A stretch of 8,400 nucleotides of DNA from a bacterium. GTDB taxonomy: Bacteria; Gemmatimonadota; Gemmatimonadetes; Gemmatimonadales; Gemmatimonadaceae. Shown piece by piece: positions 652 to 8,348 of this stretch. Location of the stretch: contig JAJZRK010000138.1 in assembly GCA_021802745.1 (NCBI GenBank), positions 1-8,400 of the forward strand, given 5' to 3'. A model generated the notes under the pieces. The model saw only the letters and a program-made list of their open reading frames with translations. It was not told the DNA's origin and made no database searches. How positions within the stretch are numbered: the stretch's first letter is position 1; every line of letters starts with the position of its first letter. Position numbers and translations under genes: made by a program.

Positions 652-2221
652 TCACATCGCGCCGAGGACGCGGATGCAGGTGCGCGCGGCCTCGCGCGCG
701 GCGAGGTCGTCCTGCGCGCGGGTGCGAGGCCGGGTTGGAATGGGCGAGGGGGGGGCTAAAAAGCTGCGTCCTCCCGTCTCACCTCGCTGCATTTCTCGGC
801 GACGCCCGTGGCCAGCACGTGGTCCAGTCTGTTCGCGAGGGGCTCGACGCGGTTGACTCGACCGGCCATGAACGCTAGTGCGTGCAGGGACCCGCCCACG
901 ACGGCGGCGTTGTACATGGCCATGAGCACGTCGATGGCGTCGTTGGGAACGATGGCGTGAGACAGGTTGGTGTGGAACTGGAAGGGGGGCGGGGCTTAAA
1001 AGCTGTTTTGCGAGGCGCGGAGCGGTAGCGGCGCGGCGCCCGGCCCGCCCGCGCCGCGCACCATCCAGTTGAACTTGACGTGCGCGGCGATGTGGCTCCC
1101 TCCCGCAGCGCGCATGTGCACGGACACGCCCACGTCGAGCGGCCACTCGTCGCCGTCCACCGCGTCCAGAAACTCGGGCATCAGGTCGCAGCGCCAGGCG
1201 TTTTTCCCCAGGCGCGATGCGCCGCGCTGCGGTGCGAAGGGCGACGGGGTTGGGCGGGCGGTGGGGTGGGGCTGCCAGCCCGCGCGCGCCGGGTGCTGTG
1301 CACCTGAGGCTCGCTCTGGACGTCTCCTCCGTCGTGCATCGGGATGACAAAGGCGCGGATGTCGGCATCGTAGAGCAGGAGCACGCTGGCCATGCCGAGG
1401 CGCGCCAGGTAGGCGGGAAACAGGCAGGGGCGGTCGGGCGCATACAGTCTCGCGTACGCCCTGGAAGCCACGGAGAAGAGCAGCGAGAAGAATGCAAACT
1501 GCGGGACGGGGCGGGGCGGTCGGTGCCGCTGCAGCGAGCGCGAGCGGGCTAAAAAGCGGCAAGCAGCGATGCACCGCGCCGCACGCACCAGGTTGCAATA
1601 CGCCCCCGGCGTGCCAAACTCGACGGTCAGGACTGCAGCATGGGCTTCGCCAAACAGCTTTGCGTCGAACGTGCGTTCCGCGACGGCAGCGACGTGGCCG
1701 AGCGCAAAGACGCGGCTCGCGAGCGGGACGAGGACGCGTTGGCCGACGGCGGGGCGCTCGAGCATGACGGCCTGCGCGACGGGGGCTTAAAAGCGGGCTT
1801 AAAAGCTGTGGACCGCGCAGCAAACCGGAGCAAGACGCGCTTGCCTGTTCGAGGGAGTCGGCCAACTCGGAGCTCAGCTCGATGCGGTGGTTGGCCCTGT
1901 GGTCGGACGCGCTCACGAGGCGGACGGCGTCCAGGATGACGTCCACGTGCGCTCGCATGCACGCGTCGACGGCGGTCGTGGCGTAAAACTGCAGGACCTG
2001 CAGGCAAAGGAACGAGGCGATGGGAGAGGGGGGCGCGGCGCGGGGGCAGAGCGGCTCGCTCGCTCGCTCGCGGGCGCGCGCTCTCGCCGTTTCTTTCACG
2101 GCGGCGGCGTTGGCGTACATGGGCGACTTGCCCTGGCCCTGCGAGTGGATCGGCGGGGGCTTAAAAGCTGCTGCCCTGCCTCCTCCACTGCAGTCGCTTC
2201 TCTCACCGTGAGCGGAGACAT
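652..2221 (-). CDS. eight-exon gene, 334-aa protein of unknown function
   Basis: Read on the minus strand, the exons are 2207-2221, 2100-2138, 1845-1997, 1589-1771, 1304-1498, 1062-1226, 783-977 and 652-711, totalling 1005 nt. They join without a frame break into 334 codons and TGA. Every intron is phase 0, every acceptor is CAG, and six donors are GTG-type while the third is GC (CAG/GCAAGC). The joined protein has ordinary globular composition, while the intron translations are Arg/Pro/Ala junk, which supports the model. The first exon encodes only MSPLT. If intron 1 lies in the leader, translation would start at the Met at 2120, in the same frame (MYANAAA). Residues about 131-140 (FAFFSLLFSV, start of exon 5) form a short hydrophobic patch, but there is no signal peptide or clear membrane segment. 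I recognise no family or catalytic motif. The product could be a virion or lineage-specific protein. The exon model is well supported; function is unknown. Confidence 0.8.
712..782 (-). other. intron 7 of the eight-exon gene (71 nt, with element)
   Basis: Donor GAG/GTGAGA, acceptor GCGCAG/G, phase 0. The variant GCTTTTTAGC at 755-764 starts 18 nt after the donor and contains a TAG in the reading frame. Confidence 0.8.
978..1061 (-). other. intron 6 of the eight-exon gene (84 nt, with element)
   Basis: Donor ATG/GTGCGC, acceptor CCTTCCAG/T after a CCCCGCCCCCCTT tract, phase 0. GCTTTTAAGC at 994-1003 lies 16 nt from the acceptor. Read-through would hit TAA within the element. Confidence 0.8.
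1227..1303 (-). other. intron 5 of the eight-exon gene (77 nt)
   Basis: Donor CAG/GTGCAC, acceptor ACCGCAG/C, phase 0, with a C-rich body. It lacks the conserved element. Confidence 0.75.
1499..1588 (-). other. intron 4 of the eight-exon gene (90 nt, with element)
   Basis: Donor GTGCGT, acceptor CCGCAG/T, phase 0. It carries the variant GCTTTTTAGC at 1548-1557, 49 nt before the acceptor. An upstream CTGCAG could be an alternative acceptor, but the model used keeps the frame. Confidence 0.75.
1772..1844 (-). other. intron 3 of the eight-exon gene (73 nt, GC-AG type, two elements)
   Basis: Donor CAG/GCAAGC matches the usual GC-AG intron donor context; acceptor CGCGCAG/G; phase 0. The GT dinucleotides nearby (GTTTGC, GTCCAC) give the wrong phase for this acceptor. 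Two GCTTTTAAGC copies stand in tandem at 1797-1806 and 1785-1794, 12 nt apart. Confidence 0.7.
1998..2099 (-). other. intron 2 of the eight-exon gene (102 nt)
   Basis: Donor GTGAAA, acceptor TTTGCCTGCAG/G, phase 0. It is a multiple of three with no stop, so retention would keep the frame, but its translation is a repetitive Arg/Ala/Glu stretch from a CTCG tetranucleotide run. A pyrimidine-rich 3' end supports splicing. It lacks the conserved element. Confidence 0.65.
2139..2206 (-). other. intron 1 of the eight-exon gene (68 nt, with conserved element)
   Basis: Donor GTGAGA, acceptor GCAG/G, phase 0. It carries GCTTTTAAGC (2159-2168) 20 nt before the acceptor. It could be a leader intron if translation starts in exon 2. 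Confidence 0.7.
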
Positions 2222-2231
2222 GAGCAGAGGT

Positions 2232-2274
2232 GCAAAATCGAAAGGTGGGAGAAAGGGAGGACCTTTCGATTTGC
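2232..2274. other. long hairpin upstream of the eight-exon gene
   Basis: Arm 2232-2246 (GCAAAATCGAAAGGT) pairs with 2261-2274 (ACCTTTCGATTTGC): 14 base pairs with one bulged base and a 14-nt loop, all purine on the plus strand. It ends 10 nt before the ATG at 2221. It could be a leader or operator structure, or a 3'-end signal for the membrane protein gene at 2451-2726, since palindromic transcript ends are known in some giant viruses. Confidence 0.65.
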
Positions 2275-2360
2275 TGTGGAGCTCAAAACAGCGCGAGAGA
2301 CTGTTTCGAAATGCTTTTGAATACTTAGAATGTGATAGAGAGGAGAGATGATGAGAGTAT

Positions 2361-2417
2361 CACATCCTGCCGCAAGTACCACATCCTGCCGCGAGTACCA
2401 CATCCTGCTGCAGGTTG
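2361..2417. repeat. 19-nt tandem repeat, three copies
   Basis: CACATCCTGCCGC(A/G)AGTAC begins at 2361 and 2380; a third, diverged copy begins at 2399 (CACATCCTGCTGCAGGT). It lies just downstream of the 91-aa gene on the minus strand. No coding role is apparent. Confidence 0.8.
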
Positions 2418-2450
2418 TATGGCAGCTTCCGCAGCGGCGCCACGAGAGAG

Positions 2451-2726
2451 TCACTGCTGCTGCTGGCCGGAAATCAGCATCCAGATGCCGAGTGCAAGAC
2501 TGAGCAGGCAGCAGCAGGCCGAGCCGCCCATGCCGGCCCATAAGCAGGCCGTCCACTCCGGTGCTGGACACGCGAAGGTCAGCCATGCGGCAGGAGCCAA
2601 TCCAATCAGATACCCCCCCGTCTGCGGAGCAAAATAATAGCCGACCAGGTTCAAAACAGTGGAGAGCGACCAGCAGCAACCGCAGACGACGAGAACGACA
2701 CCGATTGCTGTGGACGATGAAGACAT
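2451..2726 (-). CDS. small cysteine-rich membrane protein, 91 aa
   Basis: An uninterrupted frame runs from ATG (2726) to TGA (2451). Hydrophobic segments lie at about residues 6-32, 38-53 and 65-87, so two or three membrane passes are likely. The Cys residues cluster as CxCC (15-18) and CCC (71-73), the Trp count is high, and the tail is GQQQQ. Such small, Cys/Trp-rich multi-pass proteins are common in virion or infected-cell membranes of large DNA viruses, but I recognise no family. The ATG follows an AT-rich box (2740-2749) in a spacer of only 39 nt after the stop of the gene at 2766, so it probably has its own promoter. Membrane location is well supported by composition; the role is unknown. 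Confidence 0.75.
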   Translation of the reverse strand: MSSSSTAIGVVLVVCGCCWSLSTVLNLVGYYFAPQTGGYLIGLAPAAWLTFACPAPEWTACLWAGMGGSACCCLLSLALGIWMLISGQQQQ

Positions 2727-2739
2727 GGAGCAACGGTGG

Positions 2740-2749
2740 ATAAAAAATA
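2740..2749 (-). promoter_or_regulatory. TATA-like box of the 91-aa membrane protein gene
   Basis: On the minus strand this reads TATTTTTTAT, 14 nt before the ATG and the only AT-rich run in an otherwise GC-rich 39-nt spacer. Its placement suggests a core promoter with a very short leader. An AT-rich 3'-end signal for the gene ending at 2766 is the alternative. Confidence 0.5.
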
Positions 2750-2765
2750 TGGCGGGGGCGGCTCG

Positions 2766-3662
2766 TCACAGCGCGATGAACGCGTGCGTGTCGGCGCGCA
2801 TCCAGAGCTGCGTGCCGGCGACGCGCAGGAATGGGACCGAGCCGGAGTCGTCCGAGCCGATGCCGGTGCCGGTGCGCTGCCAGACGTCGCCCAGGCTGGT
2901 CAGCGGCGGGTCGAAGTCGACGGTGCGCGCGACGCAGGGGCGCAGCAGCGCCTCGCTCACGGGCTGGCGGTTGACGCGGGCGTAGGCCTCTTCGGCCGAG
3001 GAGGCGCCGCGCAACACCTCCTGGTGGAAGGCGGGCGTCAGCTCGCACACCAGCGCGCGCAGTGGGTTGAGCTGCACGCCGCCGACGGGCCCGCGCAGAA
3101 ACAGGCCGTCGCCGGAGAGTTGCCAGGCTCCGACGTGCGTGAGTTTTTCGTCCGTGACGCCTGGTTTTTCGTCCGTGACGCCGGTAATCGCCAGGCGCAG
3201 GCACAGCAGGTCGGCCGTGCGCCTGAGCACGTCCAGCAGCTGCGCCGTGCGGTCTGGACCGCGCGCCACGAACAGGCGGCTACTAGCCTTCAGGCAGGCG
3301 TAGGACGCGCCACCGAGCTCGACGCGAGCGCCCTCGAGGCGCGCGCCGGCCTGGAGGTCGCGGAAGAAGAAGGCGCGCGCGGGGCCGCCGCTCGCCTCGC
3401 CGTCCAGCAGGTCCGAGAGACCGAGCGCGCTGGCCAGGCGGGCGGGCGACGCCGCGTCCCAGATGGTCGCGTCGCGGCCGAGGGCTGCGACGACGTCGGC
3501 GTCCTGCGAGGGGGGCGGGCGGCGGGAGTGGCGTGAAAATGCGAAAGTCCCGGCTTCCTTTCGCATTTGCTGCCCGTAAAAGCGCATCGAAATGCGCCTC
3601 TGGCACAGGAGACCCACTGGAAAGTCGAGCCCGAGATCCATGTCATCTCTTGCCTCTGCCAT
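2766..3662 (-). CDS. unknown protein, 260 aa spliced (298 aa unspliced)
   Basis: The frame is open from ATG (3662) to TGA (2766). The preferred model has exons 3618-3662 (MAEARDDMDLGLDFP) and 2766-3503, joined in phase 0. The 38 residues encoded by 3504-3617 are basic and unlike the rest, and that stretch ends in a C-rich tract plus CTCGCAG. Because it contains no stop, retention cannot be excluded. The main exon is a globular sequence with ARAFFFRDL, a Leu-rich stretch (LLCLRLAITG), and a duplicated GVTDEKP at about residues 123-136. No catalytic motif or membrane segment is apparent and I recognise no family. The start is 141 bp from the divergent MYND-finger gene, so the two probably share a promoter region. 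Confidence 0.7.
   Translation of the reverse strand: MAEARDDMDLGLDFPVGLLCQRRISMRFYGQQMRKEAGTFAFSRHSRRPPPSQDADVVAALGRDATIWDAASPARLASALGLSDLLDGEASGGPARAFFFRDLQAGARLEGARVELGGASYACLKASSRLFVARGPDRTAQLLDVLRRTADLLCLRLAITGVTDEKPGVTDEKLTHVGAWQLSGDGLFLRGPVGGVQLNPLRALVCELTPAFHQEVLRGASSAEEAYARVNRQPVSEALLRPCVARTVDFDPPLTSLGDVWQRTGTGIGSDDSGSVPFLRVAGTQLWMRADTHAFIAL
3144..3182 (-). repeat. 21-nt in-frame tandem duplication
   Basis: TTTTTCGTCCGTGACGCC on the plus strand occurs at 3144-3161 and again, exactly, at 3165-3182. It duplicates seven codons (GVTDEKP) of the minus-strand gene. Exact identity suggests a recent event. Confidence 0.85.
3537..3568. other. perfect 11-bp hairpin
   Basis: AAATGCGAAAG (3537-3547) pairs with CTTTCGCATTT (3558-3568) around a 10-nt loop. 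It lies inside the probable intron of the gene at 2766-3662 and shares a CGAAAG core with the hairpin at 2232-2274. Confidence 0.7.
3582..3597. other. 6-bp hairpin with CGAA loop
   Basis: GCGCAT (3582-3587) and ATGCGC (3592-3597) flank CGAA. It stands 13 nt from the neighbouring 11-bp hairpin, within the same probable intron. Confidence 0.5.
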
Positions 3663-3803
3663 GGTTTCGAAAAAACTAAAAGTGTCTCTGTGGCGAGTCT
3701 GCATGCTCAAGAGGGTCTGGAAGGCCGGGGACTCTGCAAGATCCGGCCAACTTCTCCTGCGAGCCCTTTCCTTCCCACTTTGCGCTTCTTTCGCCGTGCA
3801 AGC
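3663..3803. promoter_or_regulatory. divergent promoter region
   Basis: This 141-bp gap separates the starts of the minus-strand gene (ATG 3662) and the plus-strand MYND gene (ATG 3804). An AT-rich run at 3665-3681 beginning with the palindrome TTTCGAAA lies immediately before the minus-strand ATG. The plus-strand gene is preceded by a pyrimidine-rich leader (about 3757-3792) without an obvious TATA box. Confidence 0.45.
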
Positions 3804-5197
3804 ATGTCTTTCGACTGGAGCACGGCGTTCGACGGTGATTGCGGCGACCTCGCCCGCGAGCCCGTTGCGCCGCCCGCCCGCTCGCCTCGACGCGCGCCCC
3901 GCCCCGCCCCCCTCTGCAGATGTCCGGAGGGTCGCAGAGCAGCGCAACATGTCGCTGGCGGCGGTCTGCGCGCGCGCGCTGCAGCAACCTCCCTTGTTGG
4001 GCACCGGGCCTTTCTGGACGCTGATCGGCGGCGACACGGCGGTGGGCAACCTGCGCGTCTGGGCGACCGTCGCGGGCGCGGCCTGGAGCGCCACGCGCGA
4101 GGCGCTGCGCGAGGCGGGCATGGCGACCGGCGCCGGGCCCTCGCCCTTCGTGCTGTTGGTCGTGGACGTGCAGCGCAAGCAGGCGGCGGCCGTGCGCGAG
4201 CCGCTGCTGCCTCCGCCGCGCGCCGGGCACTGGCTCCGCGAGATCTACGATGCCGCGCTGCTGGATTCGGCGCAGTCGGCGCGCGACAACGCGGCGGACT
4301 GCGCGGCCGACATCTGGATGGGCTTCTGCCCCCTGTCGCCCCGCGGGTCGCCCGTGCGCCTCGTGGCCATGCGGCGCGCGGCGATCGCCGCGGGGCTGCG
4401 GTACAACCCCGGCAACTGGCGCGCGGCGACCGCCACGGGGCTGCGCGACAACCCCGGCAACTGGCGCGCGGCGGACGTGCCCATGAAGCTGTGGCGCTTC
4501 CTGGTCAAGTGGTCTGGACTGGCGAGAGGGTGCGATGCCTGCGCTCTGCCGCGCGCGCCGGCGCCCCCGCGCTCGCTCACCCCGCCCGCCTCCCTGTCGC
4601 GCGCGCAGGTCGGGGCGCCCCTTCCTCGACTTCATGCCCTCCATGCTGCAGCTGGCGGCGCATTTGTCGCCGCCGCTGCTGCTCTCGCAGGCGGCCATCT
4701 GCGGCCGGCGCGAGTGCTTTGCCTGCGGTGCCGGCGGCGCGCGGCAGTGCTGCTCGGCGTGCATCGTCGCGCTGTATTGCAACCGGGAGTGCCAGCTGGC
4801 GAACTGGCGAACGCACAAGCACCGGTGCAAGCTGCTGCGCCTGCGCGTCGTGCCCGGTCCCCTGATGGAGAGCGCGGTCTGGTCGCAGGCCGCGGCCGGC
4901 TCCGCGCTGGCGGAGCACCGCGCGGCCGAGGTCGCGGGCGACGCGGCGACGGACGAGTCCGAGGTCAGCGTGGTCACCGCCGCCTGCTGCACCGGCAAGC
5001 TGATGAGCGCGGACGTCCTGGGCGTCGTGCGCGCGGCGGTGGAGGCGGCGCTGGCGTTCGAGCGGGCGCAGCTGGCGCGGCTGCCGGACGAGGGCCCGCT
5101 GCTGCGGCGCCTCAACGGCGCCTGCGTGTCGGAGCTGCAAGGCCTCGAGCCCGCGGAGGCCGCGCGCCAGTTGCTTTTTGCGCCGCCCGAGCTGTAA
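3804..5197 (+). CDS. MYND-type zinc-finger protein, 409 aa, three exons
   Basis: Exons 3804-3834, 3920-4529 and 4609-5197 join (phase 1, then phase 2) into 409 codons ending in TAA. The third exon holds a complete MYND finger at residues 250-287: CFAC, CSAC, YC, C, H and C give all eight zinc ligands (C250, C253, C262, C265, C271, C275, H283, C287). MYND fingers bind proline-rich peptides, usually in transcription regulators or SET-domain methyltransferases; no SET motifs are visible here. The N-terminal 210 residues include GPFWTLIGGDTAVGNLRVWA, a tandem GLRxNPGNWRA duplication (165-194) and MKLWRFLVKW. I do not recognise that domain. The remainder after the finger is Ala/Glu-rich and probably helical. 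MYND proteins are expanded in some giant viruses, which fits the context. The finger is near certain; the partner and role are unknown. Confidence 0.85.
3835..3919 (+). other. intron 1 of the MYND gene (85 nt)
   Basis: Donor GACG/GTGATT, acceptor CCCCCCTCTGCAG/AT, phase 1. Splicing is required to connect MSFDWSTAFD with the long downstream frame. It lacks the conserved intron element. Confidence 0.75.
4381..4470 (+). repeat. 45-nt in-frame tandem duplication
   Basis: Copies at 4381-4425 and 4426-4470 differ at four positions and encode AIAAGLRYNPGNWRA and ATATGLRDNPGNWRA in the MYND gene. Three of the four differences change the residue. Confidence 0.9.
4530..4608 (+). other. intron 2 of the MYND gene (79 nt)
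   Basis: Donor AGAGG/GTGCGA, acceptor GCGCGCAG/G after a CCTCCCTG tract, phase 2. It joins two different frames and brings the MYND finger into frame with the N-terminal domain. It lacks the conserved element. Confidence 0.75.
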
Positions 5198-5213
5198 CCT
5201 GCCGCCAAGTCCG

Positions 5214-5221
5214 AAAATAAA
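5214..5221 (+). promoter_or_regulatory. AATAAA box abutting the next start codon
   Basis: AAAATAAA follows the MYND gene stop by 16 nt and directly abuts the ATG at 5222. AATAAA is the standard polyadenylation hexamer, but in this 24-bp gap the same bases may serve as an AT-rich promoter element of the next gene. Confidence 0.45.
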
Positions 5222-6592
5222 ATGTGGGCGACGGTCATGGCAGTGCCCAGGAAAGGCCACCCCGCGAGGCGCCCGGTGCGGCGCCCCGCCGCGCACCCGC
5301 CCGCCGCCGCGCGCCGCCACCCGCCCGCGCCGTCGGGCCTGCTGCCTCGCGCGGCGCCCCCTCCTCCCCCCGCGTTTCCCACGGCGGCAGGGCCCGGCTT
5401 CATGTTCACCAACCCCCCCGGGGGCTACTCGTGCGCGCAGCTGACCAGCGCCATCAAGCCCGGCGTGATCACGTACTGCGGCACTGCCAAGAGCGCGACC
5501 GATCCCGACTTCAAGTGGATGGGCGCCTACGTGCGCGGCAAGGACGGCCAGCCGAAGATCCTGGGGAACACCTGGTTCTTCATGGGCCAGCCGCGCCTGC
5601 CATGGCCGCAGGGCCAGACCATGTACAACCTGGGACTCAACTCGTGCAACCCCTTCGTGGCCGGCAACAGCGACCGCCGGCCGTGCATCACCGAGGAGTA
5701 CAGCGTGTGCGACTTCTTGGCCGACCCCTCCAACCAGGGACAGACGTTCCTGTGCGCGGACCCGAAGACCCAAGGCTGGCAGGGCGGCTTTTACATGGAC
5801 AACGGGGTGATGAACTGGTACGCGAGCGAGGCGGACTGGCAGGCCGCGGGCAGCCCGATGAAGGCCGTGGGGCCGTGCTCGCTGCCGCTGCGCCAGGGCT
5901 GCCCGCAGGCGACGGCCCCGACCGCGGCGCCGACGACGGCGCCTTGGAGCCTGCAGCCCGCGGGCGTGACGACGAGCGTGAACGCCGGCAACACCTCGCT
6001 GCTAATGAAACTGCAGAACCAATCAAACAACACGAACAATGTAGCCAATGCGAGCCAGGGGGCGGCGGGCGGCGGCGGCGGCGGCGGGGGCAACTCGGCG
6101 ACCGCGCTGCTGCTGGCCTCGATGCTGAACCAGCAGACGCAGGCGCCGCAGCAGCCGCCCTACCCGGTGCCCTACCCCCCTCCCTACAACTTCCCGTACG
6201 GCCCGCCCACGGACACGCCTTCGCCCGTGCCCACGGACACGCCCGCGCCGTCCACGCTGGATCCGACGACCGCCGCGCTGCTGCAGCAGCTGGCCACGCC
6301 CGCGCCCACGCCCGCGCCCGCGCCCGCGGCGCTCGCGTGGTACCAGCAGCCGCTGGTCCTGTGCAGCATCGCGGTGGCGGTGCTGGCGCTGTCCGCCGGC
6401 GCGTGGTGGTGGTACGCGAGGCGCCACAGCGGGAAGGCCGCGGCTACTACCGGCGGCAACGCCGCGCGCGCGGGTGCCGCCGCCGCGCCGGCCGCCGTCG
6501 CGCCGACGCCCCGCGCCAACTCCAACTACGGCCGCGGAGGCGGCTACGACTACGACTACGGCGGCGCCGGCAACGGCGCGCCGTACCGCTGA
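5222..6592 (+). CDS. anchored protein with eight-cysteine domain and Pro/Thr-rich stalk, 456 aa
   Basis: One open frame runs from ATG to TGA. Residues 1-58 are a basic, Pro/Arg/Ala-rich segment without a signal peptide. Residues 62-228 form a compact domain with eight Cys (71, 86, 142, 155, 163, 178, 219, 227), a PPGG motif and many Trp, suggesting four disulfides. Residues 230-375 are a low-complexity stalk with NxS/T sequons (257, 266, 269, 276), a Gly run and PTDTP/PAPTP repeats. A membrane segment lies at about 377-398, followed by a Gly/Ala/Tyr tail. This is the layout of a virion surface or entry protein. Its PGG, C-x7-C and C-terminal anchor loosely recall poxvirus G9/A16 entry-fusion proteins, a comparison from memory only. 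The true start is uncertain: Met6 (5237), Met61 (5402), or an N-terminal intron ending at the pyrimidine-rich GGCAG near 5395. Confidence 0.8.
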   Translation: MWATVMAVPRKGHPARRPVRRPAAHPPAAARRHPPAPSGLLPRAAPPPPPAFPTAAGPGFMFTNPPGGYSCAQLTSAIKPGVITYCGTAKSATDPDFKWMGAYVRGKDGQPKILGNTWFFMGQPRLPWPQGQTMYNLGLNSCNPFVAGNSDRRPCITEEYSVCDFLADPSNQGQTFLCADPKTQGWQGGFYMDNGVMNWYASEADWQAAGSPMKAVGPCSLPLRQGCPQATAPTAAPTTAPWSLQPAGVTTSVNAGNTSLLMKLQNQSNNTNNVANASQGAAGGGGGGGGNSATALLLASMLNQQTQAPQQPPYPVPYPPPYNFPYGPPTDTPSPVPTDTPAPSTLDPTTAALLQQLATPAPTPAPAPAALAWYQQPLVLCSIAVAVLALSAGAWWWYARRHSGKAAATTGGNAARAGAAAAPAAVAPTPRANSNYGRGGGYDYDYGGAGNGAPYR

Positions 6593-6723
6593 GCAAGCTA
6601 TCGCCACCGAGCGCTGCGCCTGGTCGAAACGCATGCGGCCACGATCGCGAGCGCGGCGACCGCACGTGGAAAAAATTGGCGCGGCGGCGGCTGTGGCGGC
6701 GCGACGCCTGTCATCGAGCGATG
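6593..6723. other. convergent intergenic spacer
   Basis: This 131-bp gap lies between the ends of the plus-strand anchored-protein gene and the minus-strand repeat-unit gene, so it holds both 3' ends. It contains one AT-rich patch (GGAAAAAATTGG, 6669-6680) and a GCATGC palindrome. No AATAAA, strong hairpin or frame is visible. Confidence 0.5.
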
Positions 6724-7258
6724 TTACACTGCACCGTTTATGCACAGAAAGAGCAGTGCATCGGCGATTTGGGGCTGCTCCGTTATCCACTGCGCGGCCG
6801 CCAAGTCCGCCGCGGGGTCGTCGTTGCCGAGCTCCTCGATGTCTACGGGCTGCAGGCTCTCGAAGATGGGCGCGTCGCCCTGCGTCAGCCAGCACTCCAT
6901 CTCGAGCCGCCTTGCGGCGCTGACCGCGCCGTAGACGTGCAGCAGTCTCGCCAGGAACGTGGTCACCAGCCGCTGCCCCCGCACCGCCACTGCGCCGGTG
7001 GCAAACACGGTCGCCACCTCGCCGTCCGGGTTCAGGGGGGCCGAGAGCAGGTTGAACGCGACGGCGTGGGCGGGTGCACAAACGTGGCGCGCCAGCTCCA
7101 GGCGGTATAACCGGCTCCTGCCCGCACCCGTTGCGCCGCTTGGGTGGCACCACTCGAACGAGAGCCGCGTGGTCTCCAGCTCGCGCTTCTTGCCGGCGAT
7201 CGCGTCGCGCACGTCGCCAGGCAGCGGGAGGGGCAGGGGCTCCGGAGGCGGGGGCGGC
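6724..7258 (-). repeat. repeat unit 3 (last exon)
   Basis: A Pro-rich start (PPPPPEPLPLP) is followed by KKREL, LSFEW, LELARHV, AVAF, AVRGQRLVTTFLARLL and ALLFLCIN. It ends in GCAGTGTAA, a real stop rather than a GTGAG donor, which fits the last position in the gene. Confidence 0.8.
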
Positions 7259-8348
7259 CTGGGGAGGGTGGGCGGAGGGGAGGTGCGATGGTGCGAGCGA
7301 GCAGGCGTTCTGTGTCGCACGCGTCGGGCTTAAAAGCGGCAGACTCACGCGCCGATGTTGGTACACAGAAAGAGCAGGGCATCGGCGATGCCAGGATTGG
7401 CCGTCGTCTGCCGCGTGACTGCCAAGGTTGCCTCGCCGACGTTGCTGACATGCCGGTCCCTCCATACGACGCCGCCGCTGATCGCCATGGAGTATTTCAG
7501 ATTGCGGCCGTCGACTGCGGCGTTGGTTGCCCAGTGGCCATGCAGCAGCCTGGTCAGGAGAATGGTCACCAGCCGCTCTCCGCCGCGCACCGCCGCTACG
7601 ACGCGGGCGGAGTGCGTCTCCCCCGGGCCGCGGACGTGCTCGTGAAACGCGACGGCGTGAGCAGGGTGGTCGATGCGCCGCGCGAGCACCAGCTCGCGCT
7701 CCACCGGCTGTTCCACATTGACGACCCACGCAAACGTGAGCTCCATTTGCGACCCGGAAGAGGCAGGGAGCGGCCTGGGAGAAAGAAAGGGTGCGGATGG
7801 GCAACGCGGCGCGATGGGCCTGGCTTGGCTTGGCGCGGCGCGGCGCACCCTCCGCCCCACGTTGCTCACGTGGCAATGTTGGTGCACAGGAAGAGCAGGA
7901 TCTCGGACACGTCGGGGTGGGCGACCATGCTCCGCGTGGCCTCCAAGTACTCCACGGCGTCGTGTGGCGACGGGATTTGATGCTGAGTCGGCCTGGGAAG
8001 CACCTCTGCAAGCGTAACCCCTCCCTGCGTCAGGCTGCACGTCATCGCAAAGCGCGCCGCGGCGCTGAGACCCCGCTTTTCCTGCAGCATTCTGGCCAGG
8101 AGCATCGTCACCACCGGCTCGCCGCGCGCCGCAATGGCATTGCGCCCGGTGGGCTTCATCTCGGCATAGTGCGCGTTGCTGACCCTCCCCTTGTACTCGT
8201 CGAACATGACGGCGTAGGGGTCATCCGCCACGTGCCGCGCGAGCGTCAGCTGGCGTTTCCGGTACGAGCGGCCGTTGGGGGAGTACACAAGCCACTCGAA
8301 CACGAGCCGCATTGCGCCGAGCTCGCGCTGCTTCCGGCCGGCCGACAT
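6724..8348 (-). CDS. three-unit repeat protein, 479 aa, three exons (family unknown)
   Basis: Exons 7870-8348, 7349-7774 and 6724-7258 join in phase 2 twice into 480 codons with stop TAA. Each exon is one copy of a domain of about 130-160 residues. Shared signatures are LxFxW near the start, LxLAR(H/R)(V/I), AVxF, AxRGxxxVTxxLxRxL in the middle, and LLFLC(T/I)N at the end. Pro-rich linkers precede units 2 and 3 and would arise from the exon starts. The alternative is three separate paralogous genes, with units 1 and 2 ending at TGA in their donor sites. Unit 2 lacks its own well-placed ATG and upstream leader, which favours splicing. I recognise no family, catalytic residue or membrane segment; the hydrophobic LLFLC end is too short. 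The ATG at 8348 is a reasonable start, but the frame is open to the window edge, so more units may lie upstream. Confidence 0.65.
7259..7348 (-). other. intron between units 2 and 3 (90 nt, with element)
   Basis: Donor GC/GTGAGT, acceptor CCCTCCCCAG/G, phase 2. GCTTTTAAGC at 7328-7337 begins 11 nt after the donor. The presence of the same element as in the distant eight-exon gene independently supports intron status. Confidence 0.7.
7349..7774 (-). repeat. repeat unit 2 (second exon)
   Basis: The unit contains LTFAW, LVLARRI, AVAF, AVRGGERLVTILLTRLL and ALLFLCTN. Its exon start supplies PLPASSGSQ before the first conserved residue. The unspliced frame ends at TGA 7345-7347, inside GTGAGT. 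Confidence 0.8.
7775..7869 (-). other. intron between units 1 and 2 (95 nt)
   Basis: Donor AC/GTGAGC, acceptor TTTCTTTCTCCCAG/G with a classic pyrimidine tract, phase 2. The body has pentanucleotide runs (GGCTT x2 and GGCGC x3 on the plus strand, about 7827-7855). It lacks the conserved element. Confidence 0.65.
7870..8348 (-). repeat. repeat unit 1 (first exon; stand-alone frame 7866-8348)
   Basis: ATG gives MSAGRKQREL, then LVFEW, LTLARHV, AVMF, AARGEPVVTMLLARML and ILLFLCTN. If unspliced it ends at TGA 7866-7868 as a 160-aa protein; if spliced, the last codon is split at GTGAGC. Confidence 0.8.

What the first reader, a model, noticed from the sequence alone, without database searches (positions are those of the whole stretch)
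712..7348. Conserved intronic element GCTTTT(A/T)AGC in six introns of two unrelated genes
Seen: seven copies at 755-764, 994-1003, 1548-1557, 1785-1794, 1797-1806, 2159-2168 and 7328-7337. All are sense-oriented within predicted introns, usually with CCC after them and often CAG or CCG before. I found no other copy in the window. Distances vary from 11 to 58 nt from the donor and 13 to 69 nt from the acceptor, so this is not a fixed-position splice signal. Candidates are an extended branch site, a splicing enhancer, an in-frame stop device (TTTTAA and TTTTTAG put stops into retained introns), or the remnant of mobile introner-like elements. GCTT..AAGC is also a short inverted repeat. Introns 2 and 5, the MYND introns and the unit 1-2 intron lack it.
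Basis: partly seen in the sequence, partly recalled or inferred. Interest (0 to 1): 0.8.

Follow-up and report, generated by a model that had tools for sequence, protein, structure and literature searches.

The report
Strict 14-base motif inside short introns
Six of the twelve predicted short introns in this GC-rich stretch of unknown microbial DNA carry the same 14-base sequence, and nothing else in the stretch comes close to it, so it looks like an unusually strict splicing signal, perhaps the branch site, although no transcript data exist to prove that.

Summary
All seven copies of GCTTTTWAGC are where stated, all on the minus strand and all inside predicted GT/GC-AG introns. The shared unit is longer: CMGCTTTTWAGCCC, 14 bases, exact in 7 of 7. 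The next best window match scores 9.5 bits against 23.6-26.3, so copies are all-or-none. The organism is unknown; I found no relatives. My preferred mechanism is an extended branch site or 3'-splice-site recognition element with the invariant A (base 8 of the 10-mer) as branch base. From that A, the first downstream CAG is 15-22 nt away in 5 of 6 introns (45 in the sixth), and pyrimidines rise from 48 to 70% past the motif. Both signals are modest against placement controls (P about 0.01-0.04; 0.001 for a band fixed after seeing the data). Against it: poor pairing with U2, no CTRAY core, half the introns lack it, one copy puts the A 19 nt from the donor. Introner, stop-codon and acceptor readings fail tests. 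Sense orientation cannot be told from minus strand, because both genes lie on that strand.

The parts
753..766 (-). 14-mer CAGCTTTTTAGCCC in intron 7
992..1005 (-). 14-mer CAGCTTTTAAGCCC in intron 6
1546..1559 (-). 14-mer CCGCTTTTTAGCCC in intron 4
1783..1796 (-). 14-mer CCGCTTTTAAGCCC, second (3') of two copies 12 nt apart in intron 3
1795..1808 (-). 14-mer CAGCTTTTAAGCCC, first (5') of two copies in intron 3
2157..2170 (-). 14-mer CAGCTTTTAAGCCC in intron 1
7326..7339 (-). 14-mer CCGCTTTTAAGCCC in the intron between paralogous units 2 and 3
2139..2206 (-). predicted intron 1, 68 nt, phase 0
1772..1844 (-). predicted intron 3, 73 nt, phase 0, GC-AG
1529..1588 (-). predicted intron 4, 60 nt with near acceptor (90 nt, to 1499, with far acceptor), phase 0
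978..1061 (-). predicted intron 6, 84 nt, phase 0; in-frame TAA lies in the motif
712..782 (-). predicted intron 7, 71 nt, phase 0; in-frame TAG lies in the motif
7310..7348 (-). predicted unit 2-3 intron, 39 nt with near acceptor (90 nt, to 7259, with far acceptor), phase 2
1998..2099 (-). predicted intron 2, 102 nt, no motif
1227..1303 (-). predicted intron 5, 77 nt, no motif; other in-frame AG acceptors exist
7775..7869 (-). predicted unit 1-2 intron, 95 nt, phase 2, no motif
652..2221 (-). gene 1, eight predicted exons; no Pfam match for a hand-joined spliced product of 326 aa
6724..8348 (-). gene 2, three paralogous units of about 130-170 aa joined by two introns

Best explanation
The motif is most likely an extended branch site, or more broadly the branch and 3'-splice-site recognition element, of one class of short spliceosomal introns in this genome. 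The invariant A (base 8 of GCTTTTWAGC) would be the branch base, the U run just before it would be held by a branch- or U2AF-like protein, and the C-rich stretch after it would act as the pyrimidine tract up to a CAG about 15-22 nt on. Shown: the motif, its exactness, its restriction to predicted introns, its spacing and the composition change. Inferred: that the stretches are spliced, that the A is the branch base, and which factor reads it.
For: Exact 14-mer in 7 of 7 copies, all in predicted introns. One A is invariant in every copy and fits the minimal branch consensus NYYNAN (consensus quoted in PMC2483917). Distance from it to the first CAG: 22, 15, 21, 18, 45, 20 nt for introns 1, 3 (second copy; 27 from the first copy), 4, 6, 7 and unit 2-3; 5 of 6 within 15-22, placement control P = 0.0012 for that band, 0.0155 for any 8-nt band. 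Pyrimidines 48% before and 70% after the motif; placement control P = 0.012-0.035 by acceptor choice. None of the 6 motif-bearing introns has a YTNAY site. The introns are not alike end to end, so the 14 bases were kept or copied alone.
Against: Predicted pairing with U2 is 3-4 of 6 (U2 and U12 pairing letters from memory). There is no CTRAY core and the base after the A is always G. 6 of 12 predicted introns lack the motif, and 4 of those 6 also lack YTNAY, so its absence discriminates little. AG depletion after the motif is not beyond the placement control. The branch A would be 19 and 26 nt from the donor in two introns and 45 nt from the acceptor in intron 7. The A itself is predicted unpaired with very uneven probability, 0.01 to 0.97. 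The motif is longer than the branch sites in the passages I read.
Confidence: 0.5

Rival explanations
1. An intronic enhancer or silencer: a sequence-specific RNA-binding protein, or a small RNA, binds the accessible U-rich island and sets splicing or export of a chosen set of introns; the branch point is elsewhere.
For: Only 6 of 12 introns carry it, copies are all-or-none, two copies stand in tandem in intron 3, donor-to-A distance varies 19-66 nt, and the U run is predicted mostly unpaired (0.81-0.98) in 5 of 6 introns.
Against: Spacing to the first CAG is tighter than placement controls and the pyrimidine rise begins at the motif, which an enhancer does not need. In intron 3 the U run is predicted only half unpaired (0.51).
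Confidence: 0.22
2. A DNA-level element (GC-W6-GC, a possible protein-binding site) that happens to survive in introns because exons cannot hold it.
For: Both genes are on the minus strand, so RNA sense and DNA strand cannot be separated here; the core is six A/T bases between GC pairs.
Against: No copy in predicted intergenic DNA or anywhere on the plus strand; TTTTWA always points the same way in 7 of 7.
Confidence: 0.1
3. Remnant of a small intron-creating mobile element (introner).
For: Exact repeats at unrelated intron positions and a tandem copy; introners are reported in mirusviruses and algae.
Against: Introner families need similarity reaching near both splice boundaries (PMC9860276 passages). 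Of the motif-bearing pairs (15, or 26 comparisons with both acceptor choices) 0 align to within 10 nt of both ends, unmasked or with the motif neutral, and the motif's place within the intron varies.
Confidence: 0.08
4. A device that puts stop codons into retained introns.
For: In introns 6 and 7 the only in-frame stop is the one in the motif.
Against: In frame in 3 of 6 introns against 2 of 6 expected, P = 0.32; the unit 2-3 intron already has a TGA at the donor.
Confidence: 0.03

Closest known systems
Extended branch sites of intron-poor eukaryotes, such as ACTAACC in Cyanidioschyzon and GACTGACG in Ostreococcus (PMC2483917, passages)
   Same: A strict intronic motif with one invariant A in spliceosomal introns, upstream of the acceptor.
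   Different: Those share a core of the CTRAC type. Here the core is TTTWAG with fixed GC flanks, longer, and in an intron-dense gene (seven predicted introns in about 1.6 kb).
Fused branch and 3' splice site of Giardia, VCTRACACRCAG (PMC6679479, passages)
   Same: A long, strict motif near the 3' end of introns.
   Different: There branch and acceptor are one block at fixed distance; here 15-45 nt separate the candidate A from the acceptor.
U12-type branch site UCCUUAACU (PMC2846911, passages)
   Same: A U-rich stretch followed by AA or UA.
   Different: Donors are GTG-type or GCAAG, not RTATCCTTT; 4-5 of 8 pairs; the stretch after the motif is pyrimidine-rich.
Introns of mirusviruses, branch consensus WCTAAC, CYSAC or CTGAC by order (PMC12768974, passages and section 8)
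   Same: Short GT-AG introns near 80 nt, dense in some genes, genomes up to 72% GC.
   Different: None of the three branch consensuses resembles this motif; no mirusvirus marker was identified in the window.
Distant branch points near the donor in vertebrate OGDH (PMC7969005, outline and abstract)
   Same: A branch point close to the 5' splice site can work.
   Different: Different lineage, one gene, regulated exons.

Membership tests
U2-type branch site | one invariant A fitting NYYNAN | tested here: met
   7 of 7 copies, base 8 (consensus)
U2-type branch site | CTRAY core | tested here: not met
   core is TTTWAG; no YTNAY in the 6 introns
U2-type branch site | pairing with the U2 branch region | tested here: not met
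   3-4 of 6 pairs with the usual U2 sequence, recalled; the organism's own U2 is unknown
U2-type branch site | confined distance upstream of the acceptor | tested here: inconclusive
   15-22 nt in 5 of 6 if the nearest CAG is used; two of those acceptors are ambiguous
U2-type branch site | lariat at the A | not testable with these tools
   no RNA data
Introner | intron similarity reaching near both splice boundaries | tested here: not met
   0 of 15 motif-bearing pairs (26 comparisons with both acceptor choices); criterion
Introner | target-site duplications or terminal inverted repeats | not tested
   no run made
U12-type intron | RTATCCTTT donor | tested here: not met
   0 of 6 motif-bearing introns (consensus)
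U12-type intron | branch site pairing with U12 | tested here: not met
   4-5 of 8 pairs (U12 letters recalled)
Fused branch-acceptor intron (Giardia type) | fixed branch-to-acceptor distance | tested here: not met
   15 to 45 nt
Mirusvirus intron | short GT-AG intron | tested here: met
   the nine gene-1 and unit introns are 39-102 nt, one with a GC donor
Mirusvirus intron | order-specific branch consensus | tested here: not met
   no YTNAY in the 6 motif-bearing introns (consensuses). The CYSAC consensus was not scanned by itself; the motif does not contain it.
Mirusvirus intron | lies in a genome with mirusvirus marker genes | tested here: inconclusive
   of eight ORFs scanned, Pfam named only a MYND finger above cut-off; 8.4 kb is too little to judge

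The most novel reading that the evidence does not exclude
The genome has two intron classes: one read by ordinary weak signals, and one defined by a strict 14-base element, unrelated to CTRAY, that replaces normal U2 base pairing at the branch, read by a divergent U2 or by a dedicated host- or virus-encoded factor.
Probability: 0.18. Interest if true: 0.78.

Novelty: new variant of a known kind. Interest (0 to 1): 0.5.

Why it matters
Branch sites vary in strength but usually keep a CTRAY-like core that pairs with U2 (general knowledge; WCTRAYN is the extended consensus in PMC2483917). A strict, longer, non-CTRAY motif in an intron-dense gene would be an exception both to that pairing rule and to the pattern that strict branch motifs go with intron-poor genomes (same passages). 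It would also give a ready handle for finding genes of this unknown lineage in metagenomes.

Tried and rejected
Motif as acceptor (GCTTTTWAG|C): the join keeps frame in 1 of 6 introns (intron 1) and loses it in introns 3 (both copies), 4, 6, 7 and unit 2-3, where the intron would be only 20 nt. Stop device, introner and U12 readings: see rivals and membership test. In some searches the masking penalised alignment across the motif, so one search repeated the test without that bias for the motif-bearing introns.

Search for relatives: no whole genome is held; phages, megablast, no match. Viral contigs by the 456-aa protein, hand-joined gene 1 (22), MYND protein (30) and unit alignment (67): 2, 24, 14 and 137 pattern stretches, none confirmed by tblastn. 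The protein database gave five proteins in three searches (in 10 and 37 only the best 7,994 and 7,996 candidates were scored): P0002 is identical to the window's unit 1, P0004 identical over the 92% of its gene that it covers, P0001 98% identical, P0003 a paralogous unit, P0005 a variant of the same gene region. The longest contig listed for the first four is 31,118 bases; that the window lies on it is inferred. DNA patterns in viral contigs (9: 18 stretches; 21: 30; 47: 18; 74: 1) and genome contigs (48: 39 stretches) gave scattered hits. Among the loci fetched (pieces of contigs), a second copy of the 10-mer on one strand appears in L001, L060, L061 and L064 and L106, all at 37-55% GC against the window's 69%; no relative was recognised.

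Papers seen: PMC12768974 (passages and section 8), PMC2483917, PMC5995976, PMC9860276, PMC6679479, PMC2846911 (passages), PMC7969005 (outline and abstract); others as search listings only.
Full report
Observation. GCTTTTWAGC occurs seven times in the 8,400-base window at exactly the coordinates given, always on the minus strand; allowing one mismatch adds nothing on either strand (0.41 expected at that tolerance, and 0 of 200 dinucleotide shuffles reached 7). The shared unit is 14 bases, CMGCTTTTWAGCCC, in 7 of 7 copies; all four combinations of M and W occur. A weight matrix built from the seven scores them 23.6-26.3 bits and the next best place in the window 9.5. The seven trained the matrix, so their high scores are expected; the gap below them is the finding.

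Gene context. The window is 69% GC. On the minus strand gene 1 reads as eight exons from ATG at 2221 to a stop ending at 652; all seven introns are phase 0 and the join is open. The second minus-strand gene has three paralogous units joined by two phase-2 introns; unit 3 has no ATG between the far acceptor and its conserved block, so splicing is needed for it to be made from an ATG. Predicted introns in all: 12 (nine here, two in the plus-strand MYND gene, one in the gene at 2769-3662; the last three rest on splice-site reading only), of which six carry the motif. The introns are predictions; no transcript was available. Introns 1 to 5 have no in-frame stop when retained, so for introns 2 and 4, whose lengths are multiples of three, retention cannot be excluded by frame.

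Position. With the nearest CAG as acceptor, which keeps frame in both ambiguous introns, the distance from the invariant A to the acceptor is 22, 15 (second copy of intron 3; the first copy, 27, was left out), 21, 18, 45 and 20 nt. Five of six lie in 15-22. Placing the motif at random within the same introns gives that count with P = 0.0012; since I chose the band after seeing the data, the fairer number is P = 0.0155 for any 8-nt band. Pyrimidines are 48% before and 70% after the motif. Against random placement the difference has P = 0.035 with far acceptors, 0.021 with near ones and 0.012 for the four introns with one acceptor. A plain Fisher test looked far stronger (8e-7) but ignores that introns become pyrimidine-rich towards the 3' end anyway. 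AG depletion after the motif (Fisher P = 0.005) is not beyond placement (P = 0.37-0.52).

Branch-site reading. Base 8 is the one invariant A (base 7 is A or T) and fits the minimal consensus NYYNAN (passage of PMC2483917). None of the six motif introns has YTNAY; but only 2 of the other 6 do, so this is weak. Pairing with the usual U2 is 3-4 of 6 and with U12 4-5 of 8, against 6 and 8 for the control sites (letters recalled). The U run is predicted mostly unpaired in 5 of 6 introns, not in intron 3; the A itself ranges from 0.01 to 0.97 unpaired. I conclude that an extended branch or 3'-recognition element is the best single reading at about one half, with a separate RNA-binding site next.

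Readings that failed. Stop device: the motif's stop is in the upstream frame in 3 of 6 introns (6, 7 and unit 2-3), P = 0.32. Acceptor: frame is kept in 1 of 6 introns. Introner: with the motif masked, the ten highest of 36 intron pairs by z reach 2.0-3.6, and 3 of those ten are pairs of two motif-bearing introns, against 15 of 36 overall; 0 of 15 motif-bearing pairs align to within 10 nt of both ends, in 26 comparisons with both acceptor choices, unmasked or with the motif neutral. Similarity near both ends is the published criterion (PMC9860276 passages). U12 type: donors do not fit.

Where it comes from. Unknown. The protein database held only the window's own proteins, close variants and one paralogue, on few contigs, the longest 31,118 bases. 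No relative was found in IMG/VR. The absence of relatives, compact genes and introns of about 80 nt recall pandoraviruses and mirusviruses (PMC5995976 passages; PMC12768974 section 8), but no marker gene supports either, and a cellular protist is equally possible.

Caveats. Seven copies in six introns of two genes on one strand are a small sample. Sense and strand are confounded. Acceptors were picked from sequence. The statistics are post hoc.

Noticed in passing
2235-2272: Perfect AT-rich inverted repeat (12 + 12, 14 between) just upstream of gene 1 and downstream of the 91-aa ORF; possibly a transcript-end hairpin.
   Followed up: no
3537-3568: A second perfect inverted repeat of similar sequence (11 + 11, 10 between) inside the putative intron of the gene at 2769-3662. 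A close variant protein (P0005) changes frame here, which suggests the stretch is not coding, or is a sequencing error.
   Followed up: partly
[not shown]
   Followed up: partly
5222-6592: Single 456-aa ORF with a long low-complexity stretch and a likely membrane span near its C end (sequence reading); the only database hit is a 98% identical record.
   Followed up: partly
4373-4462: 45-base direct duplication, 91% identical, within the MYND gene.
   Followed up: no
2356-2412: Three 19-base tandem repeats downstream of the 91-aa ORF.
   Followed up: no
L001, L003, L006, L014: Viral contigs of 86-88 kb repeat an inverted repeat GGGGCTTAA...TTTTAAGCCCC that contains the 10-mer; possibly terminators, unrelated to the window.
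   Followed up: no
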